The translations under genes and the position numbers were made by a program. Positions 1 through 20,663 of a DNA stretch of 23,438 bases are shown piece after piece. Every line of letters starts with the position of its first letter. Position 1 is the stretch's first letter. The notes beneath the pieces are model-generated. The model searched no databases, was not told the DNA's origin, and worked only from the letters and a program-made list of their open reading frames with translations. The DNA is from a virus: IMG/VR virus record IMGVR_UViG_3300032523_000846, positions 1 to 23,438 of that record, one strand, 5' to 3'.

Positions 1-60
1 AATGCAACAGGTTCAAATGCAACAGGTTCAAATGCAACAGGTTCAAATGCAACAGGTTCT
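1..60 (+). repeat. 15-bp tandem repeat encoding NATGS
   Basis: Four head-to-tail copies of AATGCAACAGGTTCA; the last differs only in its final base (T for A, synonymous). The array probably continues upstream of the window. It is in frame and encodes a flexible Asn/Ala/Thr/Gly/Ser spacer before the Pro-rich linker. Near-identity at third codon positions points to recent slippage expansion. Confidence 0.95.
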
Positions 61-789
61 AATACACCAACTACACCACCACCGACTGTTCAAATACCTG
101 GTAGTGTTTCTTCTAATTATCCCAATGGTTTAACATACGAACAATTAGGTTTAGAGCCGGCCAAGATGAAAAATATTGGTGGTAGATGGAATTATGATGG
201 TGATGTTGATTTATCAGCAAAAACAAATCCACTTACAAATAAAAGATTTACAGAAATACCTATACCGTTTGGTGTAGTAGCTGGTAATTTTAATTGTTCT
301 AATATGGAAATTAAATCATTGAAGAATTCTCCAACTGAACTTGGTGGAACATTTAATTGTTCTGGAAACCAATTAGAATCCTTGCAAGAAGGTCCAAAGA
401 AAGCAAAATCATATCTATGTAAAAACTCAGAATTAAAATCTTTAACTGGCGGACCAACTGAAGTTACAAGTGAATTTGATTGTGCTAACAACAGATTGGA
501 TACTTTAGTTGGTGGTCCAACTAAAGTTGGTTTTGCTTACCGCTTGGATGGAAACATAAAGATAACTTCATTGAGAGGTATTTCTGCAAATGGTACATTA
601 AATCCATTAAATCAATTACAATGTGACAATTGTTCATTAACTGATGCAACAATATTTACAGGAATAAATGAAATAAAAACAAAAACATTTAATGGTGGTT
701 ATCAGCAAGATGCAGCAGATGGTACGGTAATAAAATTAGATGCTACAATGATAAAAGAAATTACAGGTGCAAAAAACATATACGTTTAA
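1..789 (+). CDS. LRR-cassette phage structural protein, 5' end outside window
   Basis: The reading frame is open from base 1, so the gene begins upstream; the first in-frame ATG (166) is internal, not a credible start. Visible order: four NATGS pentapeptides (1-60), a Thr/Pro linker (GSNTPTTPPP), a short bridge, four to five irregular repeats of about 21 residues (about 268-555), and a C-terminal cap containing LTDATIFTGI and ending in IYV. Repeats follow a pattern like L-x-S-L-x-x-G-P-x-x-x-x-x-x-F-x-C-S-x-N, a bacterial/phage LRR type with Cys in place of the usual aliphatic residue (FNCSN, FNCSGN, FDCANN). The same cassette ends the proteins at 803-2977 and 11748-13337. There is no signal peptide or membrane segment in the visible part. 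Tail or baseplate context suggests a virion surface or receptor-contacting protein; that role is inference. The reading frame is certain, the function is not. Confidence 0.85.
   Translation, partial: NATGSNATGSNATGSNATGSNTPTTPPPTVQIPGSVSSNYPNGLTYEQLGLEPAKMKNIGGRWNYDGDVDLSAKTNPLTNKRFTEIPIPFGVVAGNFNCSNMEIKSLKNSPTELGGTFNCSGNQLESLQEGPKKAKSYLCKNSELKSLTGGPTEVTSEFDCANNRLDTLVGGPTKVGFAYRLDGNIKITSLRGISANGTLNPLNQLQCDNCSLTDATIFTGINEIKTKTFNGGYQQDAADGTVIKLDATMIKEITGAKNIYV
268..555 (+). repeat. LRR tract 1 (about 21-residue units)
   Basis: Protein-level repeats in the first gene, each with a core such as FNCSN, FNCSGN or FDCANN followed by an L-x-S-L segment and a GP or SP turn. They are degenerate at nucleotide level, so they look old and selected rather than freshly duplicated. 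Boundaries are approximate. Confidence 0.8.
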
Positions 790-791
790 TT

Positions 792-796
792 GGAGA
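792..796 (+). promoter_or_regulatory. Shine-Dalgarno site deciding a TTG start
   Basis: GGAGA lies six bases before TTG at 803, and no ATG or GTG sits in frame at a better distance. The site follows the preceding stop directly. The ten bases TAATTGGAGA recur at 2978-2987, just after the next LRR gene. Confidence 0.75.
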
Positions 797-802
797 TAAA
801 AT

Positions 803-2977
803 TTGGCTGGTTTTTCCACATATTCAATAACGGCAAATGACTTTATATTCTTAAAATGTTCAAAGGCAGTAGAAGAGAGTGGATTTTCATTACCACAAAA
901 TTTTAAGTTTATAGAATGTCCTGATGATCCGCATACAACAGAAGATGCTGCAAAACATAGAAAATTAGCAAAAGTATATTCAATAGCAAATATATATTGT
1001 TCTGGATTTGAATTAAAGTTAAGTGATAAAACAAGAAAATACTTAAACGGTTATGAATATATAGGCGATAATAAATGTCCTATTGTAATTTTAGAAAAAG
1101 ATAAAGCACCTACCGAAGACGATAAACCAGCACCAACCGAAAACATTAATGCAAAGAAAATGTTTGAATCCACAACAAATTCTCCATTAACGTATGAATA
1201 TTCACTGGCGGATGCAAGAACAACTGTATATGATGGTTTTACACAAAGTGTCAAAGACTCTATACTTAGTGGAAAATTTAATATTGACGCACTAAAAGAA
1301 AATGCAATAAACGCATTAAAAGATGCTGCACCTGGTGTTTTAAATTCTTTGGCTTCTAGTCTTGGGGTGGATGCAAAGACATTATCTGCAATAACAGATA
1401 TTGTTGATTTTGTAGGTAGTGACAATATTATTAATGGTAACATTGACGCTATCAAGAAGAAATTATTAGAACAATTGGAATTAAAAAATTTAGTAGATAT
1501 TGCATCAAAGCCAGAAATAACAGAAATGTTATCTAAAACGTTAAACGTTGGTAAAGACATTCTTACTAATTTATTTGATTCTTCAAAAAACATAAAAACA
1601 TTATCTGATATAAAAACTATTGAAACATATACATCAACTGATAATGTATTTAAAATAAAAATTATTGATGAAAATTATTTAGATACACGAAAATCTTTGG
1701 ATTTAATAGTATCCGCATCGGTATTATTTTACTCCGATGAAGATACAGATAGAATAGAAGGAGAACGTATAGCTAAAGGGCTTGCAAATGAATTTTTATC
1801 TTTACTCACACCAATAGATACAACAGTATCAGAAGATACTATGCCAGATCAAAAAGTTATTTCTAAAGGTACTTGGTTAACAACATTTAATAAAATTGAT
1901 TACCGTATTCAAAAAGTTGCTGCTGTGGGATTGGGATTTGGTATAGAAGAAGAAGGTGTTACAAAACTTCAAAAATATATAGAAAATTTGAATAAATACC
2001 AACAATTGAATGAAAAATCTAATGAATTACGAGAAGGACTAAAAGATCACACGGAAACATTAGAAGAAGAAAATAGATATAATCCAGACGCAGAAAAAGA
2101 TTATAAAGAAAAACATGGTCTTACTGATAAGCAATATGATGAATCATTGGGTATAGTTTATGACAGAGGTTTAGATAATCAACAGGATGAGGAATGTACA
2201 CAAGACTGGGAACCGTCACAAGAACAGCCAGATCCAAATGATCCAAGTTATGTTATGAGACTTGATCCTGCATTGACTGTAAAGGATTCATTGGGGAATG
2301 TGATTTCATATAATGGTGATATTATATTGACTGGAAAAAGAAGTGGTATAAATCCACAAGATAATAATTCTTCTGATAATCAACTATTAAAATCTATACC
2401 ATTTAAAATTAAAAATGTTAATGGTACATTTATATGTAAGAACATGGGATTAAAGAGTTTAGAAAATGCTCCAGATGTTGTAGAAGGTGATTTTGATTGT
2501 TCTGGTAACGAATTGGTTTCTTTAGATTTTGGACCAAAATCTGTTGGTGGAAATTATTTTGCTAATAAAAATAAATTAGAAAACTTAGATGGACTTCCAA
2601 GTTCAATAGGACAAAATTTGAATTTATCTGAAAATAGAATAAGTAGTTTAGAAAATTTAGGTTGTGGAAAATCATCAACAGCATTAGGTTGTCCAACTAC
2701 TGTGTTTGGTGATGTTAATTTATATGATAATGATTTAACTTCATTGAATAATGCAAATTTGAACATTCGTGGTACACTCGATGTTAGTAAAAATGAATTA
2801 ACCGATGCAACTATTTTTACGGGTATAAGTGAAGGATTGGGTGGTAAAAATGAGAGTTTCACTTCCGATATACGAGTTAAGAAATTCATTGGTATTAATC
2901 AACAACCAGACGGTGTTGGAAAACTAAGTAATAGTTTAATTGGAAAAACATTACAAATAGACAATATTATAGTTTGA
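803..2977 (+). CDS. Large structural protein with C-terminal LRR cassette
   Basis: 724 residues, TTG start supported by GGAGA at the right distance. Residues 1-105 form an unrecognised mixed domain. About 105-125 is a charged, Pro-rich linker. About 125-300 is helix-rich with many Leu, Ile and Ala (for example LNSLASSLGVDAKTL). A second mixed region follows. About 395-460 is Glu/Lys-rich and probably coiled coil. A Pro/Asp/Gln-rich linker (about 470-490) leads to LRR units from about residue 537, then the cap with LTDATIFTGI, ending NIIV. The cap matches that of the preceding gene closely. No catalytic motif, signal peptide or transmembrane segment is visible. The N-terminal part does not resemble the N-termini of the other two LRR proteins, so the cassette looks like a transplanted module. 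Place in the virion is inferred from neighbours; the N-terminal function is unknown. Confidence 0.88.
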   Translation: MAGFSTYSITANDFIFLKCSKAVEESGFSLPQNFKFIECPDDPHTTEDAAKHRKLAKVYSIANIYCSGFELKLSDKTRKYLNGYEYIGDNKCPIVILEKDKAPTEDDKPAPTENINAKKMFESTTNSPLTYEYSLADARTTVYDGFTQSVKDSILSGKFNIDALKENAINALKDAAPGVLNSLASSLGVDAKTLSAITDIVDFVGSDNIINGNIDAIKKKLLEQLELKNLVDIASKPEITEMLSKTLNVGKDILTNLFDSSKNIKTLSDIKTIETYTSTDNVFKIKIIDENYLDTRKSLDLIVSASVLFYSDEDTDRIEGERIAKGLANEFLSLLTPIDTTVSEDTMPDQKVISKGTWLTTFNKIDYRIQKVAAVGLGFGIEEEGVTKLQKYIENLNKYQQLNEKSNELREGLKDHTETLEEENRYNPDAEKDYKEKHGLTDKQYDESLGIVYDRGLDNQQDEECTQDWEPSQEQPDPNDPSYVMRLDPALTVKDSLGNVISYNGDIILTGKRSGINPQDNNSSDNQLLKSIPFKIKNVNGTFICKNMGLKSLENAPDVVEGDFDCSGNELVSLDFGPKSVGGNYFANKNKLENLDGLPSSIGQNLNLSENRISSLENLGCGKSSTALGCPTTVFGDVNLYDNDLTSLNNANLNIRGTLDVSKNELTDATIFTGISEGLGGKNESFTSDIRVKKFIGINQQPDGVGKLSNSLIGKTLQIDNIIV
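2411..2815 (+). repeat. LRR tract 2
   Basis: Six or so irregular LRR units of the same type as tract 1, with cores such as FICKN, FDCSGN, LNLSEN, VNLYDN and LDVSKN. Several units replace Cys with Leu or Val at the core position, closer to a canonical LRR. Boundaries are approximate. Confidence 0.75.
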
Positions 2978-2982
2978 TAATT

Positions 2983-2986
2983 GGAG
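2983..2986 (+). promoter_or_regulatory. Shine-Dalgarno site choosing ATG at 2993
   Basis: GGAG is six bases before the ATG at 2993. An in-frame TTG at 2981 would overlap this site and has no ribosome binding site of its own, so the ATG is the better start. Confidence 0.8.
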
Positions 2987-2992
2987 AAAGTA

Positions 2993-3994
2993 ATGGAAGC
3001 GGATATTTACGTATTGGATGATATTGATAAAGAAGAAGTTAACATTACCATTGTTGACCAAAATTATGGTTCACAATTATTAGAATTTATTATAGATTCT
3101 GGAAGCATTGAAGATCCAGGATTTATTGATGATGGTGCTTGGTTCGATGTGAAGCCAGAGGTCCAAAGAACAGTTAGTGCGCAAAAACCAGGTGAAAAAA
3201 GTGCTGGAATAAGTGCAGGTGGTGGTAGTCCTTGTTTAAAACCAGGTTCAACAACTCCTGTTAATGCAAACGAAACAGCAACTCCAACTACCGGGGGTGG
3301 TGGAGCATCTGATGTTCCTAAACAAGATGAATCAGCAGCAATTGGAGCCGCTCAAGTTCCAATATTAGACGCTACTGGACAAGGTAGTAGTGGCACCTAT
3401 AATAAAGTGAAATTTACAGGTTTAAAAAATGGATCTGGATGGTGGATTAGTCCTATAAAAAAGAAGATGGTAACAATACCTACTATTAAATCCAAGTGGC
3501 TTGTTACAATAGAAACATGGGCTGTTTTTACAAATGTACTTTTTGATATTCACAATGAAGTGGAAGACCTGAATTTGTTTACTACCGGCGACGGCCAAAA
3601 TGAAGGTAGTTTTTTGGTAAGAGAAATTAAAAATCCAGACATCCCAAAAACAGGATGGCCCTCACCAAAATGGTCTAATCATTCTTCTGGAACTGGTGTT
3701 GATATAAATACTCATTTACATCCGTTTAAGACAATCAAAGACCCTACAAAACGTGGATTTTCACCACAACAACTTGCTAAGATTGACCAAATTTGTGGTG
3801 TACGATATAACGGCGGAATGTACCCTGCTTACAAATATAATGATGATATGCATTTTGAAGTAAAAATTAAACCAGCTGAATTAGCAAAAATTACTAAAGA
3901 CTTAAATTTAGAAGTACGTGCAGCTGCAATACAAGCAGGAACCCTTAAAGCAAAAGTATATCCACCAAGTGTATCAGGACAAAAATCTTGGTAA
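2993..3994 (+). CDS. Peptidase M15-like (VanY/D-Ala-D-Ala carboxypeptidase type) tail lysin
   Basis: 333 residues from ATG 2993. The N-terminal 55 residues are acidic and unrecognised. About 55-120 is a Gly/Ser/Thr/Pro-rich low-complexity linker. The rest is a globular domain carrying M15 signatures: NHSSGTGVDIN, giving putative Zn ligands His230 and Asp237, and DDMHFEV, giving His287 with nearby Glu289. In this family the Zn-bound His/Asp/His site cleaves peptide bonds in peptidoglycan stem peptides, as carboxypeptidase or L-Ala-D-Glu endopeptidase. Which bond is cut here cannot be told. There is no signal peptide or transmembrane segment, which fits a virion-carried enzyme. It lies between the LRR genes and a second, larger lysin that also ends in an M15 domain. 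A role in wall penetration during infection is more likely than host lysis because no holin-like gene is adjacent, but that is inference. Confidence 0.82.
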   Translation: MEADIYVLDDIDKEEVNITIVDQNYGSQLLEFIIDSGSIEDPGFIDDGAWFDVKPEVQRTVSAQKPGEKSAGISAGGGSPCLKPGSTTPVNANETATPTTGGGGASDVPKQDESAAIGAAQVPILDATGQGSSGTYNKVKFTGLKNGSGWWISPIKKKMVTIPTIKSKWLVTIETWAVFTNVLFDIHNEVEDLNLFTTGDGQNEGSFLVREIKNPDIPKTGWPSPKWSNHSSGTGVDINTHLHPFKTIKDPTKRGFSPQQLAKIDQICGVRYNGGMYPAYKYNDDMHFEVKIKPAELAKITKDLNLEVRAAAIQAGTLKAKVYPPSVSGQKSW

Positions 3995-4042
3995 TTTATA
4001 ATTATAATATATGTTATTTAATTTATGTATAGAGAAATATAA

Positions 4043-7000
4043 ATGGCAGGTCCATTAGATCCAAGAGTAGAACTTAGAAGTAAATGGGGTAGATTCAAAT
4101 CCTCAAAGAAAGCATTAAATGCACCACTTGTATTTTGTGCTGGTGGAATACCGTTAGGTACGGTCTTTGCTTGTTCTGGTGTAGCGTGTGTTGCACTTCC
4201 TGGTGAATATATGTGGCCAGAAAAAGAAGATGGAAGCAATGGGAGTCCATCTGACGCTGCTGACTATAAAGGGTATTCTATTTTAACAGATTTTCACGTT
4301 TATACACCAATGTACACATCTGGTGACAAAGGTTCAACTGGCAATCATTGGAAAAATTATAATGCTACAACGTTTGCAAAAGAATCTTGGAATGAATTAC
4401 AATCTATTTTAACGATCCGCAATATAAAACCTTCTAAAAAAATAATTGTAGGTTTTTCGGGTGGTGTTGGTTTTGTAACAAAAAACATCGCAACTTTTGG
4501 TGGTAGTTGGACCTATTGGGATACTGTTTTACTTGCAGGGGCGTATGCTCCTCATCCTGAAGGAGCTGACCAAGTAAAACGAATACAACAAGCAAAAAAA
4601 TCTAATAAAAATACATACTACTTTTCAGGTGGCTTAAAAGGTGCCGATGGTCCAGACGGTTTTGATAATCCAGGTTTTGATGAAACCGCAACACTCTATG
4701 GTAAAGATTTTATCAAAACTTCAGTAGGTCACATGGGATTAGTTCCTTATACCGCTACTTGGATTAAAAATAATGTGAAAGTTACATCTACCGGAGAAGC
4801 AGCAACACCAAGTGGTGCAGCAACAACAGGTACAGGTGGAACACCAAATACAACACCAACCGGATCAAGTGGTACACCAAATACAACACCAGCAGAAACA
4901 GGTCAAAAATCTAAACTTCCAACTATATGTGAGTTACTAGCACCACATTTACCAGCACAGGTAATTGAAGAATTACCTGCTCTTATTAAGAAATTTGATG
5001 TAACTACGATGAATCAAATGATTCACTTTTGTGGACAATGTGCACATGAAACTGGAAATTGGAAAAGTACGACTGAAACGGGAGCAAATGCTGGAGCTAG
5101 ATATGAAGGGAGTGTAAATTTAGGAAATAATAAACCAGGAGATGGTGTAAAATTTAAAGGTCGTGGTTATATTCAATTAACTGGCAGATGGAATTACGGT
5201 CATTTTTCAAAGTGGTTAAAAGCAGAAGATTTAACACAATTTCCAGACTTAGTTGCAACTAAATATGCAGTATTATCTGCATTCTTTTTTATGAACGATA
5301 AAGGACTATGGACAGCAGCAAAAGACGCTGGATATAGTGATGCAGAAGTAACACGCATAACTAAGGTTGTGAATGGTGGATATAATGGTTTAGAAGAAAG
5401 AAAAAAATATACTGAAAAATTTAGAAAAATACTCGAAGGGAATAAATTTGTTTTATGTGGTGAAGTGGTTGAGGGAGTTATAGCGTCTTCGGTGACTGAA
5501 TCAAACGGAACCAATGCACAAATAGCAACCGCTTCAGATGATTGTAATGATTTACAAAAAGAAGATGCAAAATTAAAAGCAAACGAATCACCAGAAGGTG
5601 CTAAAGTAGAAGAAGTAGCAAAAGATCCATTACCACCACCAAAAGATGAAACTCCTGTTAGTTTGGATGGAAAATATAACCATAGATTTTATATTTTACC
5701 AACTAAAGAAAATAAACCCCTTACATTAGCAGAGATGGTTGATAAAAAACAAAAATATTATAAAAGATATTGGGCATGGAGAACAGACGAAAATCCAGGA
5801 TATGGAATTGCTGCAAACGAAAATAAGTTAGTATCGGATGATGGAAAACCTCTAATAAGTGCACTAGTTCCATACTGGCCACCACATAGTGGATCTTTTG
5901 ATGATATTAAAGAACCAACCGTAGCAGGCAAATGGTTGAATTTAATAAAAGGGCAAAAAGATATTGAATCTTTTTTAGATGTTCCAATTTTGTTGAATGC
6001 TTATGATGTTGGTGTTTTTAATGATAACATAGGTTATGTTTTTGAAGCAGGTAATGAATTACACATGACTTTATTGGAAAAAGTTTTTCTTACAAACAAA
6101 GGTTCTCAGATTGGAATTGGTAACGCTGTAAATACAACAATATCAGATAAAAAAAATCAAGATTCAAGTTGGAGAGAATGGCCAAAGTGGTCTGGTATAT
6201 GGGTTGAACATTGTTTGAAAAAATCTGGCTATACTTTATACGGTGATATAAGTGTAAACATCAATACTTACCATGAAAAACTTTTAAGTGGAAATAAGTT
6301 AATAAATTATCCTGGTAATAAAGAATGGAAATGGAAAGATTTGAAAGCAGCGGGTATCCAAGACCTTGTTTTTAAACCAAGTAGAATATGGCAAGATCCA
6401 GCAAATTTAAACTCAGACGAATTATTAAAGGATACTGGTGATATTGCAATATTTGTTGTTGAATATCACATAAAGAAAGATGGTACATTAACTGAAAGAG
6501 GACAGAAATTATTAGATAAAATAATATCGTTGAATTGGAAATTAGGAGTTATTTCTGCTGTAAAAAGTCACACGGCACAATCTAATCAGTTATACGCAGA
6601 GGTTTTGGTATATCTTGATAAAACTGGTAAGATTGTTACTTTTGGTGGTAATACAACACCACGGGGAGCAGATTCTATTCCAGGTGGTGGTCCATATCAC
6701 ATTGCTGTAAAAGAAACAAACTTCAAAGATTTTGCAATATTAGCGGGTGATAATTGGGTAAATGGTGCGGTATTTATTTCTAATATTAAATCTGGCGGAG
6801 ATGGACACAGAGTTGGTGGTTTGGATTCTAAGATATATACAACAACTATATTCAAAGATTATTATAAAAGAGTAGATACTGAAAAAGGAAAACTAACAGG
6901 TAGAATGTATAATTTCTTATTACCGTATATTGACCAAAAACCAGCTGCACCTGCTCCTGCAAAAATAGAACCAGAAAATTCAAATGAAGTAAAACATACA

Positions 7001-7642
7001 AAAATAACCCCTGCTGCAAGGGTGGATGGGAAAGATGCAGGTGGGTTCGTAGAGGAATCGAGGGAAGATGCTTTAGCTAAAGGATTAATTCAGAAAGTAC
7101 CAGGGCAACCTAACGAGGAATTACGAAGTACAGCAATGCCAGATTTTCTTGCAATGCGGGACGCTGCTAAAGTAGCAGGACATGCTATTTCACTTACTTC
7201 ATCATTTAGAACATGGCAGGATCAAGTAAGAATATGGGGGGGATCAGGTGGAATACGAATAATGGATCCGAATAACCCTAAAGATAAAGGACTTATTAAA
7301 AGGCAAGGTATAGATCATTTGTCTTCTGGAGGTGATCCTGTAACTGTTGGTATACCAGTTGGTTATCATACAAGGAATATGACGAGCTACAGAGGGGGGT
7401 CTTTTCATCAAAGAGGTAGAGCTATTGATTTTCATTATGGTGAAACTTCAACTAGAAAATCAGCAACTAAACCAGCAATGGTGAAGTTATATGGTAGTAA
7501 TTATCAAAAGTATTTAGATGGAGAACAAGGTCCAAATCAAAAATGGGTTCGTAAAAATGGACAAAAATATCAATGGTTTGGGTACTATGGTGAAATATGG
7601 CATTTTAATTATAAAGAGAATAATACAGGGGGAACTGTATAA
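4043..7642 (+). CDS. Multidomain tail lysin: alpha/beta-hydrolase-like, GH19, Cys-peptidase-like, M15 peptidase
   Basis: 1199 residues, ATG start with a weak purine-rich site (AGAGAAA). Residues 27-53 are unusually hydrophobic with three Cys. About 70-250 resembles an alpha/beta hydrolase: nucleophile elbow GFSGG (Ser139) and a C-terminal His in VGHMG (His230). About 255-287 is a Thr/Pro/Gly linker with an internal repeat. About 290-475 is a GH19-type domain: CAHETGNW (Glu336, likely acid), RYEG (Glu355) and FKGRGYIQLTGRWNY (371-385); such phage domains cut glycan strands of peptidoglycan. About 540-965 is unrecognised, but WVEHCLKKSGY (Cys724) and KSHTAQSNQ (His843) recall DUF2272/NlpC-like amidases; this is tentative. 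About 1010-1199 is an M15 peptidase: HQRGRAID (His1122, Asp1129) and EIWHFNY (Glu1184, His1187). Its place just ahead of gp25 and gp6 suggests a hub or tail-tip lysin, analogous to T4 gp5 in role. GH19 and M15 calls are firm; the other two are weaker. Confidence 0.88.
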   Translation: MAGPLDPRVELRSKWGRFKSSKKALNAPLVFCAGGIPLGTVFACSGVACVALPGEYMWPEKEDGSNGSPSDAADYKGYSILTDFHVYTPMYTSGDKGSTGNHWKNYNATTFAKESWNELQSILTIRNIKPSKKIIVGFSGGVGFVTKNIATFGGSWTYWDTVLLAGAYAPHPEGADQVKRIQQAKKSNKNTYYFSGGLKGADGPDGFDNPGFDETATLYGKDFIKTSVGHMGLVPYTATWIKNNVKVTSTGEAATPSGAATTGTGGTPNTTPTGSSGTPNTTPAETGQKSKLPTICELLAPHLPAQVIEELPALIKKFDVTTMNQMIHFCGQCAHETGNWKSTTETGANAGARYEGSVNLGNNKPGDGVKFKGRGYIQLTGRWNYGHFSKWLKAEDLTQFPDLVATKYAVLSAFFFMNDKGLWTAAKDAGYSDAEVTRITKVVNGGYNGLEERKKYTEKFRKILEGNKFVLCGEVVEGVIASSVTESNGTNAQIATASDDCNDLQKEDAKLKANESPEGAKVEEVAKDPLPPPKDETPVSLDGKYNHRFYILPTKENKPLTLAEMVDKKQKYYKRYWAWRTDENPGYGIAANENKLVSDDGKPLISALVPYWPPHSGSFDDIKEPTVAGKWLNLIKGQKDIESFLDVPILLNAYDVGVFNDNIGYVFEAGNELHMTLLEKVFLTNKGSQIGIGNAVNTTISDKKNQDSSWREWPKWSGIWVEHCLKKSGYTLYGDISVNINTYHEKLLSGNKLINYPGNKEWKWKDLKAAGIQDLVFKPSRIWQDPANLNSDELLKDTGDIAIFVVEYHIKKDGTLTERGQKLLDKIISLNWKLGVISAVKSHTAQSNQLYAEVLVYLDKTGKIVTFGGNTTPRGADSIPGGGPYHIAVKETNFKDFAILAGDNWVNGAVFISNIKSGGDGHRVGGLDSKIYTTTIFKDYYKRVDTEKGKLTGRMYNFLLPYIDQKPAAPAPAKIEPENSNEVKHTKITPAARVDGKDAGGFVEESREDALAKGLIQKVPGQPNEELRSTAMPDFLAMRDAAKVAGHAISLTSSFRTWQDQVRIWGGSGGIRIMDPNNPKDKGLIKRQGIDHLSSGGDPVTVGIPVGYHTRNMTSYRGGSFHQRGRAIDFHYGETSTRKSATKPAMVKLYGSNYQKYLDGEQGPNQKWVRKNGQKYQWFGYYGEIWHFNYKENNTGGTV
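4838..4891 (+). repeat. Direct repeat in interdomain linker
   Basis: Two copies of a 21-base unit, GGWACACCAAATACAACACCA, at 4838-4858 and 4871-4891, encoding GTPNTTP twice. They form the flexible linker between the hydrolase-like and GH19 domains. The only difference is one synonymous base, suggesting recent duplication. Confidence 0.85.
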
Positions 7643-7752
7643 TTTATATAATATTAATGTCTATTGGTTTCCTTAAATTACTGAAAATATATAAAAATGA
7701 TATTTATATTTTTAGATAGGTTATTATTAACAATTATTGAGTAGGTATTCAG
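7643..7752 (+). other. Intergenic gap, no gene
   Basis: 110 AT-rich bases with no plausible reading frame. A purine-rich GAGTAGG lies about seven bases before the next ATG (7753) and is the likely ribosome binding site. I see no convincing hairpin terminator. As one of only two gaps over 100 bases it is a candidate promoter site, but no promoter motif stands out against the AT background. Confidence 0.5.
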
Positions 7753-8184
7753 ATGGAATCAAATCAGTTTTTTAAGAAAATCCGAGAAATAATCAGAGAA
7801 GAAATAGATTACGCGTTGGATAAAAAATTAAATACTCCACCGGTAGTCAAAAAAAGTCAAAAAGAAACTATTGAGCATGGGTTATCTTTATTAAAACAAT
7901 ATCAAGATAAACCTAAACCTCAACAAAAACCAAAACAATCAAAGTCTGCTTATGGTTCTATACAAGATATTTTGGCAGAAACAAGAAGAACATTACAAGA
8001 AAGCAACGATTTAGACGGTGAATTTTCATTCACATCTGATATGGCAAGCGAATTTGGTAATTCTAAATACGGTGCTATACCACAAGGTGTTAATCCAAAC
8101 GAAGTTCCATCCGATGTAATGAGTGCGTTAACAAGAGATTACTCTGCACTTGTTAAGAAAATGGATGAGAAAAAAGGGAGATAA
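7753..8184 (+). CDS. Small conserved-looking unknown protein upstream of gp25
   Basis: 143 residues, ATG start with GAGTAGG upstream. Not recognised. Residues 1-27 form a charged amphipathic helix (KKIREIIREEIDYALDKK). About 35-50 is helical. About 52-65 is a Lys/Pro/Gln-rich linker (KPKPQQKPKQSK). About 70-85 is another helix (IQDILAETRRTLQES), and the C-terminus is basic (DYSALVKKMDEKKGR). There is no signal peptide, membrane segment or enzyme motif. Only three bases separate its stop from the gp25-like start, so it is probably co-transcribed and translationally linked. A baseplate accessory or assembly role is possible from position alone. In T4-like phages small proteins of the wedge (such as gp53) are also near here, but I see no specific similarity. 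Confidence 0.75.
   Translation: MESNQFFKKIREIIREEIDYALDKKLNTPPVVKKSQKETIEHGLSLLKQYQDKPKPQQKPKQSKSAYGSIQDILAETRRTLQESNDLDGEFSFTSDMASEFGNSKYGAIPQGVNPNEVPSDVMSALTRDYSALVKKMDEKKGR
8176..8180 (+). promoter_or_regulatory. Shine-Dalgarno site deciding a GTG start
   Basis: GGGAG, inside the end of the upstream gene, is seven bases before GTG 8188. The ATG at 8184 is in another frame and hits a stop after five codons, so GTG is the start. Confidence 0.8.
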
Positions 8185-8187
8185 TGA

Positions 8188-8682
8188 GTGGCAACATTTA
8201 GAAGAAAAAGAGAATTTGTAAATCCTAATAATCCTAATATAAATTTGGGAAAACCAATTGGAGTTTTAATTCCATTTAATGCAGAATCAGGGATATTTAG
8301 ACAAAGTTTTACAAATACTCAACAAGTTTTATCTAACTTGAAAAATCTTTTGTTGACTTCAAAAGGTGAACGGTATATGTTACCAACCTTTGGCACGGAT
8401 ATTCGTACTGTATTATTTGATAATATTTCAAGTGAAGACGAATTTACAGGCAGATTGAATTCTGAAATAGAAAGTGCAATTACAGAATGGATGCCGTTCT
8501 TAACAATTGTTCAATTGGAAACAATAATACCAGCAGTTGACCCACGATTAGACGATCCAGGTCATGCTGTTTCTATAAAATTAGTTGTAAAAATTAGTGG
8601 TACAAACATTTATCTACCTATACAGATATTTATATCGGATACAGGAAACTTACTAATACGAGAGGCAATCTATAATGGCTGA
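8188..8682 (+). CDS. 25: gp25-like baseplate wedge protein (GPW/gp25 family)
   Basis: 164 residues with a GTG start. The central part matches the GPW/gp25 pattern: FRQSFTNTQQVLSNLKNLLL (about 38-57), then TSKGERYMLPTFGTDIRTVL, with the family's G-E-R-x-x-x-P-x-F-G-x-x-x-x-x-x-L-F signature, and a helix with EIESAITEWMPFL. T4 gp25 is 132 residues, so this one is slightly long, with an N-terminal basic extension (about residues 1-25). In contractile injection systems gp25 anchors the wedge to the inner baseplate and starts sheath assembly; its EPR-like motif contacts gp6-type proteins. Here the motif reads GERYMLP. Its end overlaps the gp6-like start by eight bases, the usual arrangement, which supports co-translation. 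Confidence 0.93.
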   Translation: MATFRRKREFVNPNNPNINLGKPIGVLIPFNAESGIFRQSFTNTQQVLSNLKNLLLTSKGERYMLPTFGTDIRTVLFDNISSEDEFTGRLNSEIESAITEWMPFLTIVQLETIIPAVDPRLDDPGHAVSIKLVVKISGTNIYLPIQIFISDTGNLLIREAIYNG

Positions 8683-10576
8683 TTTAGTTAAAAAAGACAT
8701 TCGTTATCTTTCAAGAGATTTCTCTTCTTTGAAACAAAACCTTATTGATTTTACGAAAAATTATTTTCCAAATACATATCAAGATTTTAATGAAGCATCA
8801 CCTGGTATGATGTTCTTAGAAATGGCTGCATATGTTGGTGATGTTTTGTCATATTATACAGATGTTACTCTTCAAGAAACAATGCTTTTACACGCAACTG
8901 AACGTGTAAACATATTAAATACGGCACAATCTCTTGGATATATGCCTAAAAATAGAATTGCTGCTAATGTAAAACTTGATGTTTTTCAAATAGTTCCTGC
9001 TAAAACTATAGTTTCTGCTAGTGGAAGTCAAGTTGTACCAGATTATTCATACGCATTTGCAATAGAACCTGGTATGGTAGTCGGTGCAACAACTAATTCT
9101 GGCGTTGAGTTTAGAACAGTTGATTTTGTTGATTTTAAATTTAGTAGTAATATTGACCCAACCGAAGTTACTCCGTTTGAAGTTGATGTAAACGGTGAAG
9201 TTTTATTTTGGTTATTAAAAAAATCAGTAAAAGCAATTTCTGGTAAAGTAGAGTATTTTGATTATGAATTTAACGATCCAAAACCATACGATAGAGTTGT
9301 ACTGAATAATGCAGATTTTATAGAAATTTTATACGGTATTGATGACGATAATAATACTTGGTATAATGTACCGTATCTCGCTGCTGATACTATATTTAGT
9401 CCAGTTATAAATATTGCAAGAAATGATACAGAGTTATCCGCATATAGAGATGAAACACCGTATCTTCTTAAATTAAAGAAAGTTTCAAGAAGATTTACAT
9501 TAAGAACAGTTGACCAAGGAATTTATGAAATACAGTTTGGTGCTGGTGTTGCTGACTTAGATGATGAGGAACTAATACCGAATCCAGATTTAATTGGAAG
9601 TTCATTAACTGGTATTGAAAGTTCTGTTTCTTTGGATATAGATCCTTCTAACTTTTTATATACTAAAACATACGGACTTGCTCCAAATAATACTACAATT
9701 AGAATTTATTATACAACCGGTAAGGGTATACAAGATAATGTTGCAAGTGATACACTTACCAGAATTTTAACTAGAAGTATTTTACTTGATGAAACTGGTC
9801 TTGATAATGTTTTATACACTCAGATAGTTGCAAGTTTAGCGGTTACAAATCCAAAGCCGGCCGTAGGTGGTAAAGCAGGTGATGAAATAAACGAGATACG
9901 AAATAATGCTTTAGCAAATTTTGCTTCACAAAACAGAGCAGTAACTAAAGAAGATTATATTATTAGGGCTTACACGTTACCTTCCAAGTATGGTTCTATT
10001 GCAAAAGCATATATTACAAAAGATACACAATTAACGGTTGAATCCATATATAATACGGAAAGAATTCAAAACAATTTAGCCTTAAATTTTTATGTATTAG
10101 GATATGATGCTAATAATAAATTAACTGTTATTAATGATGCAACTAAGGAAAACTTAAAAACTTATTTGAATTATCATAGAATATTAACAGATGCTATTAA
10201 CATTCGTGACGCATATATAATTAATATCGGAATTGAATTTGATATAATAACTTTTCCAGATCAAAATAGTAATCAAGTTATATTAAGATGTATAAACCGA
10301 TTAAAACAATATTTTGATGTAAATAAATGGCAAATAAATCAACCTATTATAGTTAGTAATATATTCACCGAATTGGATAGAATAGAAGGTGTACAAACCG
10401 TTGTTGATGTTAGGTTAACAAACAAATACGATCAAACATTAGGTTATTCTCCAAATGCTTATAATTTACAAGAAGCAACAAGAAATGGAATTGTTTTCCC
10501 TTCTTTGGATCCTTCTATTTTTGAAATAAAATACCCAGATAATGATATTATTGGTAGAGTGAGGGCATTCGGATGA
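8675..10576 (+). CDS. 6: gp6/J-like baseplate wedge protein
   Basis: 633 residues, close to T4 gp6 (660). The N-terminus has the family's recognisable look: DIRYLSRDFSSLKQNLIDF, then FNEASPGMMFLEMAAYVGDV and LSYYTDVTLQETMLLHATER (about residues 8-85), followed by NILNTAQSLGYMP. The middle (about 90-350) is beta-rich; about 400-440 carries the conserved NEIRNNALANFASQNRAVTK-type segment followed by EDYIIRA, typical of baseplate J/gp6 proteins. The C-terminus has the ferredoxin-like segment with AYIINIGIEFDIITFPDQNS and IVSNIFTELDRIEGVQTV. In the wedge, two gp6 copies and one gp7 build the ring-forming heterotrimer of the baseplate. It overlaps gp25 by eight bases and the next gene by four (ATGA). 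The call is firm at family level. Confidence 0.93.
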   Translation: MADLVKKDIRYLSRDFSSLKQNLIDFTKNYFPNTYQDFNEASPGMMFLEMAAYVGDVLSYYTDVTLQETMLLHATERVNILNTAQSLGYMPKNRIAANVKLDVFQIVPAKTIVSASGSQVVPDYSYAFAIEPGMVVGATTNSGVEFRTVDFVDFKFSSNIDPTEVTPFEVDVNGEVLFWLLKKSVKAISGKVEYFDYEFNDPKPYDRVVLNNADFIEILYGIDDDNNTWYNVPYLAADTIFSPVINIARNDTELSAYRDETPYLLKLKKVSRRFTLRTVDQGIYEIQFGAGVADLDDEELIPNPDLIGSSLTGIESSVSLDIDPSNFLYTKTYGLAPNNTTIRIYYTTGKGIQDNVASDTLTRILTRSILLDETGLDNVLYTQIVASLAVTNPKPAVGGKAGDEINEIRNNALANFASQNRAVTKEDYIIRAYTLPSKYGSIAKAYITKDTQLTVESIYNTERIQNNLALNFYVLGYDANNKLTVINDATKENLKTYLNYHRILTDAINIRDAYIINIGIEFDIITFPDQNSNQVILRCINRLKQYFDVNKWQINQPIIVSNIFTELDRIEGVQTVVDVRLTNKYDQTLGYSPNAYNLQEATRNGIVFPSLDPSIFEIKYPDNDIIGRVRAFG

Positions 10577-11745
10577 TTTATACACTATACGCTCAAAAAG
10601 ATACAACTATTTATGAAAAATTTGAAACACTTAATAGCGGATTAGATCCATTATTGGAATTATCTCACGAAAAAGCATCTACATCATCTTTAGTTTATAA
10701 TAGTCGTGTTTTAATGAAATTTGACATGAGTGAAATAGAAAGTAGAGTGGATGCTGGTAAAATTTCTCAAAACGCAAAATACTATTTATCATTACGTTCT
10801 GCTGACGTTAGAGAAATACCACAAGAATATACTGTTTATGCTTATCCATTGAGTTCTTCTTGGACAAACGGAACTGGAAAATATTTTAATAATCCAATAA
10901 CTACCGATGGCGCTTCTTGGAAATATAGAACATCAAAGACAATAGGTGTTGAATGGGATATTCCACCTGCAATTTTAAATTATGAATGGGATAACGCTTC
11001 ACTGACTTGGGTTGATGCTAATCTTTTATTTGGTGTAAACCTTTCAGCGTATGTTACCGCATCTTATAATTCTAAGGAAGGCGGTGGTACATGGTGGACA
11101 TATGATAATGTAGAGTGTACACAATCGTTTTCATATGAATCTTCTGACATTTATATGAACATTTCTCAGATAGCAAAGAAATGGATAACTGGTTCTGGTA
11201 GATTTGTAAACGATGGCTTAATTATGAAGTTCAGTCAAGAACTTGAAAATTCAGGCGAAAGCTTAACAAGTCTTAAATTCTTCGGTACTGATAGTAATAC
11301 AATATATGTTCCAAGATTACACGTTGTTTGGGACGATTCTATATTTATTACTGGAAGTTTAACACGAGTAGATGTTGACGGATTAATACCAAACATTAAG
11401 TTAAAGAAGTTTTATTCACAAGATGAAAAACCAAAAATAAAAATACATGCTAATAAAAGATTTCCACAAAAAAATTATACAACTGAAGCATATAATTTAA
11501 CAAACTATTATTTACCTACTTCATCCTATTATGAAGTAAGAGATGCACATACTGATGAAGTAATTTTACCGTTTGATTATACTGGTTCAAAGATAAGTTG
11601 CGATGGTACAAGTAGTTATTTTAATTTATGGATGAACTCTTTTCAACCAGAACGATTTTATAGAATAGTATTAAAAGTAGAAACATCGGGCGGAGATAAT
11701 GTTCAAATATTTGATAACAATTATTACTTTAAGGTTACGAGATAA
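10573..11745 (+). CDS. DNRLRE-like beta-sandwich structural protein
   Basis: 390 residues, ATG in an ATGA overlap with the gp6-like gene, so probably translationally coupled. The first 250 residues resemble DNRLRE-type carbohydrate-binding-like domains: ATG followed by LYAQKDTTIYEKFETLNSG, then SRVLMKFDMSEI, KYYLSLRSADV, VYAYPLSSSWTNGTGKY, and ISQIAKKWITG, in the family order (thin strand, FD-x-S, strand, W-rich motif). Residues about 250-390 form a second beta-rich part ending in YRIVLKVETSGG and NNYYFKVTR. There is no signal peptide or transmembrane segment. In other settings DNRLRE-like domains occur in secreted and surface proteins that bind or act on polysaccharide. Here the gene sits inside the wedge cluster, so a baseplate-peripheral or host-glycan-binding role is plausible but inferred. 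The domain assignment is moderate; it could be a different jelly-roll. Confidence 0.8.
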   Translation: MIYTLYAQKDTTIYEKFETLNSGLDPLLELSHEKASTSSLVYNSRVLMKFDMSEIESRVDAGKISQNAKYYLSLRSADVREIPQEYTVYAYPLSSSWTNGTGKYFNNPITTDGASWKYRTSKTIGVEWDIPPAILNYEWDNASLTWVDANLLFGVNLSAYVTASYNSKEGGGTWWTYDNVECTQSFSYESSDIYMNISQIAKKWITGSGRFVNDGLIMKFSQELENSGESLTSLKFFGTDSNTIYVPRLHVVWDDSIFITGSLTRVDVDGLIPNIKLKKFYSQDEKPKIKIHANKRFPQKNYTTEAYNLTNYYLPTSSYYEVRDAHTDEVILPFDYTGSKISCDGTSSYFNLWMNSFQPERFYRIVLKVETSGGDNVQIFDNNYYFKVTR

Positions 11746-11747
11746 TT

Positions 11748-13337
11748 ATGTTAGAACGTGATGCATTGACTGGTGGAATCGTAAGTTATACCGATGATAG
11801 TGAAATTCAAAATCAAGGAGTTCTTGACGTAGCCGTGTTAGACGGAAGATATATACGTAGAGATTTTTCTCGTATAATAGATACTACGTTTAAGTCACTA
11901 AAAGGTGCAGCTTCCGCGGAAGCAAACGTAAATAAGAAAATAAAAAGTATTCAAAATAGAGCTTTATTACCAGGTGAGTTGGAAAAAATAGCGGGTAGAA
12001 ACTTACCAGATACGATATTAAGTGATACGGAAAAAGCACAATTTGCTAAAAAAGAATTTCTCAATACTATATCTAATTTGATTAGTATGGATAGTAACAC
12101 AACTACTGGTATGCAATATCAAATGGATCAAATGAAAGAACAATTAGGAACTAAAGATTCTATTATAAGTCAACAAATACAAACAATTTCAAAATTTGAT
12201 GATGTTTTATCATCGGTTTCTGCTGAAAGAGCACTTGCGGTTTCAAAAGCAGAAAGATTACGTGAAGCAAATGTTTCATTACAAAGACAAGCAGATGAAA
12301 AATTATCAAGGATACAAAACGAAGTAGTTGCTCAAAGAAAACAAGCAGAAAAATCAGCAACAGAGTTAAAAACTGCTTTGGTAGATAATATAAGTGCAAC
12401 AAATACAAAACAAGATGTTGATATTGAACAACTTAAATTACAAAATTTACAATTACAACAAAATCTTGTAGACACAGCTAATGCAATATCTGATACAAAA
12501 CAATCTATTATAGACTTACAAAATTCAGTAGATGCTGCTGCTGCAGCCGATGCATCTGGCTCTAATACACCACCACCACCGTCACCAGTCGGACCAACTA
12601 CGGATCCTAATATATTAACCGCTCTTGGATTATTACCTGATCACGTTTCGTATGTTGACACTCCAAGCGGTAGAGTTATGAACGTGTTCAGAAGTGTAAC
12701 TGTTTCATCACAAGCGGTAAAAAATGGGGCACTTATGGTAAAGTTCGGTGTTGTTAATGGAACATTTGATTGTTCTGGTGTTGGGTTAACAACTTTAGCA
12801 GGCGCGCCATCCAAGTGTTCTGAATTTAATTGTTCAAATAATTCGTTAATTTCATTACAAGGCTCACCACAAATTGTTTACGATGGAACAGTTGATTGTT
12901 CTAAAAATAAATTAAAAGATTTATTAGGTGGCCCACAAACTGGTGCTTTTACTAAATTAGACGGTGATGTTGCTACTGCACAGCGTAATACGTTTTATAG
13001 ATATGATTGTTCAAACAATGAATTGAACACACTAAAGGGGTATCCTCAGACTTCTTCCGATTTAGGTGGAGCTACCGATGTTACGGTAATAATGGCGGAT
13101 TTTAATTGTTCCAATAATCAGTTTCTTGTTGAAATCGATGGTGTAACTGCCACACCAGGAAAACAACCTATGAATATATTTAATGCAAGTAATTGCCTTC
13201 TTACTGACGCCTCGTTGGGGCGTTCTCAGATACGTTGGGCAACCTTAGAATTTAATGGCGCAAATCAACAAAATGGAATAAAATTAGACGCTAGTGTAGT
13301 TAAACAATACACAAAAGCAGTAACCGTTATAGTATAA
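11748..13337 (+). CDS. Coiled-coil baseplate/fibre protein with LRR tip
   Basis: 529 residues, ATG two bases after the previous stop. Residues 1-100 are an unrecognised N-terminal anchor with DGRYIRRDFSRIID. About 100-268 is a long, nearly Pro-free helical stretch rich in Gln, Lys, Glu, Ala and Leu, likely a coiled coil (for example LKLQNLQLQQNLVDTANAIS). An Ala run and a linker GSNTPPPPSP follow (about 262-285). LRR units occupy about 330-460 (FDCSG, FNCSNN, VDCSKN, YDCSNN, FNCSNN). The C-terminal cap has LTDAS, FNGANQQNG and ends VIV. The linker and cap resemble those of the first gene in the window, suggesting they are paralogues. The layout (anchor, stalk, linker, tip) is that of a trimeric or dimeric short fibre or whisker; oligomeric state is inferred. 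It lies between wedge genes, so attachment to the baseplate is likely. Confidence 0.87.
   Translation: MLERDALTGGIVSYTDDSEIQNQGVLDVAVLDGRYIRRDFSRIIDTTFKSLKGAASAEANVNKKIKSIQNRALLPGELEKIAGRNLPDTILSDTEKAQFAKKEFLNTISNLISMDSNTTTGMQYQMDQMKEQLGTKDSIISQQIQTISKFDDVLSSVSAERALAVSKAERLREANVSLQRQADEKLSRIQNEVVAQRKQAEKSATELKTALVDNISATNTKQDVDIEQLKLQNLQLQQNLVDTANAISDTKQSIIDLQNSVDAAAAADASGSNTPPPPSPVGPTTDPNILTALGLLPDHVSYVDTPSGRVMNVFRSVTVSSQAVKNGALMVKFGVVNGTFDCSGVGLTTLAGAPSKCSEFNCSNNSLISLQGSPQIVYDGTVDCSKNKLKDLLGGPQTGAFTKLDGDVATAQRNTFYRYDCSNNELNTLKGYPQTSSDLGGATDVTVIMADFNCSNNQFLVEIDGVTATPGKQPMNIFNASNCLLTDASLGRSQIRWATLEFNGANQQNGIKLDASVVKQYTKAVTVIV
12739..13125 (+). repeat. LRR tract 3
   Basis: Five recognisable units with DCSN/NCSN cores separated by L-x-x-L and GAP/GSP/GGP turns, interrupted by a non-repeat insertion between the third and fourth units. 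Same repeat type as tracts 1 and 2. Boundaries are approximate. Confidence 0.8.
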
Positions 13338-18284: not shown

Positions 18285-19526
18285 ATGGCATCAGCACCGC
18301 AAATATTTTTCCCAATAACAACTATATCAGATACATTTGGTAATTATGGTTCTATGATTTATACAACTACACCAACACGGCCACTTTGGGGTTCTAATAT
18401 TGGGTTTACATTAAATAATTTTTACACAAGTTCTTTACAAACAGCAACTTCTAAACAATATTATTATGAAGTGTGGGCATCTGCCTCACTAACGTGTAAC
18501 GATGAAAGAATGTTTGCCGTAGCGTATGGTAACATAAGTGGATCTGGTTCATCGTATGATACTGATGATACTTCATTAACAGGCGATACACCAACCAGAG
18601 CTATATATAATCAACATAGATTACTTTGTTTGGATGGTGATGAAGTTGGATTATTATTATCTGGTTCGAGAGCAACAGAGCTTTTGACAAATACACCATT
18701 GGAACATTTTTATGCAGTTTCAATTAATCGTGATAGATTTGGTGATAAATTAGATCCAGGTAATTTCCAATTAAATGTTGCTGAATTGAGTGGTTCTTAT
18801 GTTGAAATGCAATATCACACGGGAAGTAATGTTAGGGTGAAACCTGCTGGTAAATTAATTCATCTAATCGATGACTCTGGTGATATTAGTAATAACGCGT
18901 TAGAATATAATGAATTAGTAGATGATCCAAAAGCGTTATCAAAACCAAGAGCGATTGTTAGTGGAAGTATTTCAAACGGTATTTATAATAATGGTGCTTC
19001 CATCAATGGTGGTAGGGAAATTTATGGAGTGGTTTATCCTAGTTTAGGTACAATGTTATTATCTGCTGATGTACTAAATAAATCAGCGTCATTTAATAGT
19101 TTTACAGCAAGTAATGCTAACGGTGATAATGCACATAAATTATTTACAGCGATTTCTGGTGCGTATGAAACCCATACCGCTGGCTTCCAAGCTAGGTCAA
19201 TTGACATAAAAAAATGTCAACAATATTATATTAGTGTAATGCCAACTTTGGATGGGTTTGGAACATCAAATCCAACATGGATATTACCACCTGATAGTGA
19301 AGATCCATATGTACCAGGTGGAACTGTGACTGGCTTAATAAAATATCCAGATATGCGATGGAAGGGGGATCCTAATACTGGTACACCTGGACAAACCGTT
19401 GTTTACGTAACTTCAATTGGTTTATACGATGATAACAATAATCTATTGGCGGTTTCAAAATTAAGTGAACCAATAAAACATGAAAATAGTGATATGCTAT
19501 CGGTTACAGTTAAGTTGGAGTATTAA
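18285..19526 (+). CDS. Fibre-like structural protein, paralogue A
   Basis: 413 residues, ATG with AGGA about ten bases upstream. Beta-rich, with no signal peptide, coiled coil or enzyme motif. It is paralogous to the next two genes through an N-terminal module (about 45-175): YTSSLQTATSKQYYYEVWAS, MFAVAYGNISGSGSS, TRAIYNQHRLLCLDG, FYAVSINRDRFGDKLD and FQLNVAELSG. The middle holds GKLIHLIDDSG and GIYNNGASINGGREIYG. A second module shared with paralogue B fills the last 40 residues: VVYVTSIGLYDDNNNLLAVS, then KLSEPIKH, ending KLEY. That closing pattern looks typical of phage baseplate/fibre proteins, though I cannot name a family. It has only three Cys. Possible roles are a tail fibre, baseplate decoration or head-fibre subunit; the location after the wedge genes favours the baseplate or tail. 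Function is inferred from context. Confidence 0.83.
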   Translation: MASAPQIFFPITTISDTFGNYGSMIYTTTPTRPLWGSNIGFTLNNFYTSSLQTATSKQYYYEVWASASLTCNDERMFAVAYGNISGSGSSYDTDDTSLTGDTPTRAIYNQHRLLCLDGDEVGLLLSGSRATELLTNTPLEHFYAVSINRDRFGDKLDPGNFQLNVAELSGSYVEMQYHTGSNVRVKPAGKLIHLIDDSGDISNNALEYNELVDDPKALSKPRAIVSGSISNGIYNNGASINGGREIYGVVYPSLGTMLLSADVLNKSASFNSFTASNANGDNAHKLFTAISGAYETHTAGFQARSIDIKKCQQYYISVMPTLDGFGTSNPTWILPPDSEDPYVPGGTVTGLIKYPDMRWKGDPNTGTPGQTVVYVTSIGLYDDNNNLLAVSKLSEPIKHENSDMLSVTVKLEY

Positions 19527-19528
19527 AA

Positions 19529-20656: not shown

Positions 20657-20663
20657 GGTAAAT

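What the first reader, a model, noticed from the sequence alone, without database searches (positions are those of the whole stretch)
1..13337. One C-terminal LRR cassette on three unrelated N-termini
The proteins ending at 789, 2977 and 13337 share an LRR tract of about 21-residue units with Cys in the core (NCSN/DCSN), followed by a similar cap: LTDA(T/S), then F-x-G-x-x-QQ, then a final I-x-V or V-I-V. Their N-terminal parts differ (repeat linker, helical domain, coiled-coil anchor). The pattern fits a transplantable binding module placed on several baseplate proteins, perhaps giving one phage several receptor contacts, or a shared docking or maturation cap. Phage LRR proteins with this look are known; one cassette shared by three tail-cluster genes is the unusual part.
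Basis: partly seen in the sequence, partly recalled or inferred. Interest (0 to 1): 0.72.

Follow-up and report, generated by a model that had tools for sequence, protein, structure and literature searches.

The report
Shared binding-type tip on phage baseplate proteins
Three neighbouring tail proteins of an uncultured virus of bacteria end in the same repeat domain with its own closing piece, an inherited module that probably lets the tail tip bind something, although its partner is unknown.

Summary
The proteins ending at 789 (A), 2977 (B) and 13337 (C) carry one homologous C-terminal LRR cassette of about 235-250 residues on N-terminal parts without similarity (profile-profile probability 0.3% or less). 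The cap is homologous by itself, most clearly A-C and A-B, weakly B-C. In three wider viral scans 48 of 179 LRR-core ORFs had the cap; all 48 were A or B proteins.

A is not a bare repeat linker: the contig edge cuts a protein of 767-777 residues in relatives, probably a gp5/VgrG-like hub (unproven). The cassette is inherited, not freshly transplanted. In 113 records with a complete hub and a next gene, the hub had the cassette exactly where the next gene was B (13 both, 100 neither, 0 mixed), probably one evolutionary gain. C carries it only in the window and its near relatives.

Most likely it is a terminal binding head; an envelope target is my leading guess, docking between tail proteins the main rival. 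Receptor binding is not shown and no hypervariable face was found. The LRR fold was modelled for B only; C's model failed and A was not modelled.

The parts
1..789 (+). Protein A: C-terminal 262 residues of a hub-type baseplate protein, cut by the contig's 5' edge inside a (NATGS)n linker
   Evidence: full-length relatives of 767-777 aa in L043, L045, L047
88..786 (+). LRR cassette of A: lead segment, LRR units and cap
616..786 (+). C-terminal cap of A (LQCDNCSLTDATIF ... NIYV)
   Evidence: cap profile
803..2977 (+). Protein B: helical N-terminal part plus LRR cassette; wherever the hub is visible, found only directly after a cassette-bearing hub
2243..2974 (+). LRR cassette of B; model residues 474-724 align to solved LRR domains
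2777..2974 (+). C-terminal cap of B (strand pair, helix, final strand in the model)
11748..13337 (+). Protein C: baseplate-cluster protein with a long predicted helix plus LRR cassette
12588..13334 (+). LRR cassette of C, seen only in the window and its near relatives
13179..13334 (+). C-terminal cap of C (FNASNCLLTDAS ... TVIV)
2981..3994 (+). Context: putative M15-type peptidase/endolysin
   Evidence: Pfam match just below the curated cut-off
4043..7642 (+). Context: large lysin with GH19-like and VanY parts
8188..8682 (+). Context: gp25-like baseplate wedge protein
8675..10576 (+). Context: gp6-like baseplate wedge protein

Best explanation
A, B and C are baseplate-cluster proteins of a contractile-tailed phage that end in one homologous LRR domain closed by a family-specific C-terminal cap. 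Shown by sequence: homology of cassette and cap, unrelated N-terminal parts, inheritance of A and B as a pair, with C added in the window's near relatives. Inferred: the cassette is a folded binding head at the far end of its carrier. On A it hangs on a variable low-complexity linker from a probably gp5/VgrG-like hub. On B it follows a helical body encoded next to the hub. On C it lies beyond a long predicted helix (probably a coiled coil) near the wedge genes. In this reading the A-B pair acts together at the tail tip on a component of the host envelope, and C adds a further contact.
For: Homology of cassette and cap. Unrelated N-termini. LRR fold of B: residues 531-620 and 631-670 mostly at pLDDT 85-95; VIA-align Z 11.9-13.8 in the 50 rows listed, most of them LRR proteins by title or by recall. 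Position after a variable linker: (NATGS)n, (TDPNTP)n or (SGT)n. Dispensable: 100 of 113 hub records lack it, among them Mel-JY01 with 56.6% identity in the hub body. C homologues end differently: 146-848 aa. Cassette dN/dS 0.19-0.43 against 0.06-0.13 for gp6.
Against: No binding partner is known. Concave positions are not significantly less conserved than other exposed ones (A p 0.17, B p 0.54). Cassette dN/dS is about that of the carriers' own N-terminal parts (0.16-0.38). A central hub is an unusual place for a receptor-binding domain (general knowledge). The strict A-B pairing can equally mean docking. B's model is weak in its loops and part of the cap (621-630 at 41, 671-690 at 48-49), Foldseek alone gave no match below E 0.001, and VIA-align warns that Z under about 13 for repeats may mean only a common arrangement. 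C's model fails from residue 373; A was not modelled.
Confidence: 0.45

Rival explanations
1. Intra-virion docking: the cassettes of A and B, homologous domains on two neighbouring gene products, bind each other or one common tail protein and so tether B to the hub; C was later recruited to the same joint.
For: Hub cassette and gene B occur together in 13 records and neither occurs in 100, none mixed; six further contigs (L299, L300, L304, L308, L356, L357) also have both. The cap is the part confined to these proteins.
Against: The hub tree allows a single gain (support 81/67), so the pairing stands for few independent events. C homologues in other cassette-bearing lineages do without the cassette. 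Long variable linkers do not suggest a rigid joint.
Confidence: 0.3
2. Periplasmic or wall anchor: the heads hold the spike and its lysins on peptidoglycan or another inner envelope component after puncture, not on a surface receptor.
For: B lies between the hub and lysin genes with M15-, GH19- and VanY-like parts; in L054 and L060, which lack B, the gene after the hub matches the window's lysin at 27-31% identity.
Against: No wall-binding family was matched; C is encoded among wedge genes, away from the lysins.
Confidence: 0.12
3. Drift: an LRR domain spread by duplication without a specific role.
For: The same LRR core is common in other phages and in bacteria.
Against: dN/dS is below 1 in all cassettes tested; the A-B pair and the cap are kept in every cassette-bearing lineage seen.
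Confidence: 0.08
4. Artefact: generic LRR resemblance, not one shared module.
For: The LRR core alone matches many unrelated LRR proteins; the B-C cap pair alone is weak (z 2.6); the A-trained and C-trained cap profiles reach window-clade B only at E 0.3-0.45, behind unrelated hits at 0.02 and 0.08.
Against: In one search the best hits outside the training group are always other A, B or C caps (A-trained: C 6e-6; B-trained: A 6e-7; C-trained: A 1e-4), among all ORFs of the loci then held; 131 other LRR-core ORFs have no cap at E below 0.1.
Confidence: 0.03

Closest known systems
LRR domains of bacterial effectors and surface proteins (YopM, IpaH, SspH1, internalin B), met only as rows of the structure comparison
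   Same: Solenoid of short LRR units with end caps; the B model aligns over about residues 474-724 with Z 12-13.5
   Different: Those are bacterial effectors or surface proteins; here the domain is the C-terminus of phage tail-cluster proteins, with a cap not found elsewhere in the scans made. Tied Z values show fold, not kinship or function
Free-standing phage LRR gene arrays (e.g. L008, L009, L310, L327)
   Same: Same LRR core and leading segment (IPxKFxxVxGxFxC type)
   Different: Small proteins in tandem gene arrays with other C-termini and no A/B/C cap
Microcystis phage Mel-JY01 (PP395634.1) and Flavobacterium phage vB_FspM_immuto (NC_055915.1)
   Same: Homologous hub, gp25, gp6 and further genes
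   Different: No cassette match in the 40-kb stretches read; no B after the Mel-JY01 hub; C homologue or its positional equivalent without LRR
T4 gp5 / VgrG hub-spike
   Same: Gene position before the wedge genes; weak similarity to a VgrG spike (E 0.15) and of 1 of 13 hubs to DUF2345 (E 0.002)
   Different: Carries an LRR cassette on a linker; membership not proven

Membership tests
LRR superfamily | Tandem LxxLxLxxN-type units of 20-30 residues | tested here: met
   A and B: motif hits mostly 20-21 apart; C: 22-37 apart with long loops; alignment
LRR superfamily | Solenoid LRR fold (B) | tested here: met
   pLDDT mostly 85-95 over the units; VIA-align Z up to 13.8 with solved LRR domains. 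Foldseek alone: no E below 0.001, best rows include LRR proteins
LRR superfamily | Solenoid LRR fold (A and C) | tested here: inconclusive
LRR superfamily | Match to a curated Pfam LRR model above its cut-off (usual, not defining) | tested here: inconclusive
   A: LRR_5 13.9 bits, cut-off 27.7; B and C: none at E 0.1
Contractile-tail (T4-like) baseplate cluster | gp25 and gp6 wedge genes in the same cluster | tested here: met
   gp25 35.8 bits, cut-off 27.2; gp6 PHROG 4.9e-22; homologues annotated as baseplate wedge
gp5/VgrG-type hub-spike (protein A) | OB fold plus repeat spike | tested here: inconclusive
   Profile of 13 hubs: VgrG E 0.15 among PDB sequences; DUF2345 in 1 of 13 members; no PHROG
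gp5/VgrG-type hub-spike (protein A) | Trimer on the tail axis | not testable with these tools
   Needs a virion structure
Phage receptor-binding protein | Binds a host surface structure | not testable with these tools
   Needs binding or adsorption assays
Phage receptor-binding protein | Diversified binding face (usual, not strictly defining) | tested here: not met
   Concave positions not significantly less conserved than other exposed ones (4 lineages for A, 3 for B, so low power)

The most novel reading that the evidence does not exclude
The cap is a pairing surface: A and B cassettes form an obligate LRR-LRR pair that fixes gene product B to the central hub and makes a composite tail-tip recognition or docking unit, to which C was added in one group of phages. 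This would be an LRR-based module at the centre of a contractile tail.
Probability: 0.27. Interest if true: 0.68.

Novelty: new variant of a known kind. Interest (0 to 1): 0.5.

Why it matters
LRR proteins are common in large phages, but the listings of the nine literature searches made here (open-licence PMC papers only) showed no paper describing an LRR head on hub or wedge-cluster proteins of a contractile tail. If the heads bind the host, they would be a further kind of tail contact beside fibres and spikes, with the cap as a marker for finding such phages. If they dock, they would show how an extra protein is fixed to a hub. The strict co-occurrence of hub cassette and gene B makes an interaction test simple.

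Tried and rejected
Recent transplant or gene conversion between A, B and C: not favoured, because the cassettes group by carrier across lineages (A 60/84, B 56/54, C 100/100). Support for the A and B groups is low and the tree warns of long branches, so the origin of C's cassette (nearer to A by profile, and by cap, but not placed with A on the tree) is not settled.

Hypervariable binding face: a first crude count (concave 0.13 against convex 0.44 identity in A) looked like diversification, but its convex class held conserved structural Gly/Pro. With a fixed register it is 0.21 against 0.32, p 0.17. Rejected for lack of support.

Positive selection: pairwise dN/dS is below 1 in every comparison printed; the highest values, 0.41-0.74, are in the 45-codon cap of C and rest on few sites.

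Cap on other N-termini: sought with three further viral scans and one genome scan; none found beyond A, B and C. These scans use short conserved patterns, so absence is not proof.

Foldseek of full-length B: no E below 0.001. PDB sequence search with C: chance-level hits. AlphaFold of C failed for the cassette. Family searches: no PHROG for the hub bodies, no PHROG or Pfam family for the B body of L141.

Counting rules: loci of one contig were merged by hand; left out were hubs cut at the 3' end, minus-strand hits, hub matches under 200 residues, hubs without a next gene, three short duplicate loci, and the window itself (hub cut). B was accepted as first or second next ORF; in the listing it is the first wherever present. 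Several cassette-bearing contigs came from searches with B or the cassette, so 13 to 100 is not a frequency.
Full report
What the window is. It is a 23,438-base virus record (G000), 28-37% G+C by kilobase, without tRNA genes. It holds a contractile-tail baseplate cluster: a gp25-like protein (8188-8682), a gp6-like protein (8675-10576), lysin genes with M15-, GH19- and VanY-like parts (2981-7642), and large proteins downstream. The nearest named phages by gp6 are Microcystis phage Mel-JY01 (70% identity) and Flavobacterium phage immuto (42%). The host is not known; a Bacteroidota host is my guess.

The observation. Proteins A (1-789, cut at its 5' end), B (803-2977) and C (11748-13337) end in one homologous domain. 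BLASTP gives 7e-26 (A-B), 4e-24 (A-C) and 1e-10 (B-C). With four near relatives per protein, hhalign gives 99.2%, 99.1% and 90.3%. The N-terminal parts are unrelated, at 0.1-0.3% probability. A search of the whole record with C finds only these three places. Motif spacing is mostly 20-21 in A and B; in C it is 22-37.

The cap by itself. Because LRR units resemble each other, I tested the last 52-66 residues alone. Trained on A, a cap profile finds C best (6e-6), then B of L140, L139 and L144 (about 9e-4); window-clade B comes only at 0.3, behind an unrelated hit at 0.02. Trained on B it finds A (6e-7) and C (4e-4), with no unrelated ORF among the 22 rows shown. Trained on C it finds A (1e-4) and B of L140/L139 (0.03), then an unrelated ORF at 0.08 and window-clade B at 0.45. 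Against shuffles the B-C pair is weak (25 of 1000 reach it), the other two strong (0 of 1000). So A ties B and C together; the direct B-C link is weak.

How specific it is. The LRR core is common: 87 ORFs in the ORF set of 66 bacterial loci (mostly Chlorobiaceae) have it, with no cap at E below 1. In 66 further viral loci 179 ORFs have the core; 48 have the cap at E 4e-4 or better, all of them hub A (24) or B (24) proteins; the other 131 do not. Two more cap hits at E 0.8, one without core, look like chance. These counts hold several loci of the same contigs.

What A is. In relatives G001-G003, whose A cassettes are 81-96% identical to the window's, A is 767-777 residues long: a hub-like body of about 400 residues, a further stretch, a variable low-complexity linker, then the cassette. 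The body resembles a VgrG spike only weakly by sequence, so I call it hub-type, not proven gp5.

Distribution. A gp6 scan and a hub scan (80 loci kept in each) and a B scan gave, with the named phages, 113 distinct records with a complete hub end and a next gene. In 13 the hub has the cassette and is followed by B; in 100 it has neither; none is mixed. Among the closest hubs (E below 1e-150) the numbers are 13 and 21. Six further contigs show both, making 19 contigs plus the window. They fall into at least four lineages: the window and its relatives; the L053 group; L139/L144/L299/L300; L141/L142/L304. L356/L357, not placed on the tree, may be a fifth or belong with L053. On a tree of 31 hubs made before the last scans the 10 cassette-bearing rows form one group with modest support (81/67; 80% of bootstrap trees), so a single gain is likely. 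A 137-kb contig of the L053 group has exactly two cassette matches, at A and B.

Protein C. C carries the cassette in the window, G001, G002, G003 and G015. Complete C homologues without it are seen in three other cassette-bearing lineages: L053 and L135-L138; L141, G007 and G016; G008 and G018. C was not examined in L131, L139, G019 or L356/L357. In further related contigs C homologues range from 146 to 848 residues with different ends. So C's head is probably a later addition, perhaps from A, which is nearest in profile and cap, though the tree does not place it.

Fold. The model of B (mean pLDDT 65) has a helical body and an LRR solenoid: residues 531-620 and 631-670 mostly at 85-95, loops 621-630 and 671-690 at 41-49, the end 691-724 at 68-87 with a strand pair, a helix and a last strand. 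VIA-align places about residues 474-724 on solved LRR domains with Z 11.9-13.8 in the 50 rows listed; these rows are tied, and the tool warns that repeats can reach such values by common arrangement. Foldseek alone was weak. C's cassette could not be modelled and A was not tried.

Evolutionary rate. In the window's near relatives cassette dN/dS is 0.19-0.43, like the carriers' own N-terminal parts (0.16-0.38) and above gp6 (0.06-0.13). Concave positions are not significantly less conserved than other exposed ones.

Interpretation. I favour a terminal binding head: it lies beyond linkers or a long helix, is dispensable across related phages, and LRR domains are binding scaffolds (established knowledge). 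The A-B pairing suggests that these two act together, which is also the main argument for docking. The evidence does not choose between envelope binding and docking; hence 0.45 against 0.30.

Novelty. Tail-protein module swapping and phage LRR proteins are known kinds (general knowledge). A capped LRR cassette shared by a hub, a hub neighbour and a wedge-cluster protein is a new variant as far as the nine literature searches show (listings only, open-licence PMC papers).

Noticed in passing
window 18285-23438: A second shared module: the proteins at 18285-19526, 19529-20656 and the end of 20664-23438 share a domain (E 6e-40, 2e-19, 4e-17); in Mel-JY01 five consecutive genes match it at least in part.
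   Followed up: partly
L008, L009, L310, L312, L313, L327 and others: Tandem arrays of free LRR genes with short conserved N-termini such as MKHIKPYKIFES or MKLKQLFES, which recall (from memory) the T4 capsid-targeting sequence; they could be packaged and injected proteins.
   Followed up: no
L230-L290, mostly Chlorobiaceae genomes: Green sulfur bacteria and others carry LRR proteins with the same core but other C-termini.
   Followed up: partly
L147 11525-16294, L148 2767-7578, L149 10788-13559, L150 15037-17235, L059 2-1825: In related phages LRR domains without the cap lie inside large proteins near the hub or lysin genes; in L147-L150 the hub itself has no cassette, in L059 the hub is not seen.
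   Followed up: partly
window 4043-7642 and relatives L043, L045, L047: The large lysin varies strongly between close relatives (64-81% identical to the window's, dN/dS 0.35-0.56), far more than gp6.
   Followed up: no
L007 4195-5265: In this short contig the C homologue is split over two overlapping ORFs, by a frameshift or an assembly error.
   Followed up: no
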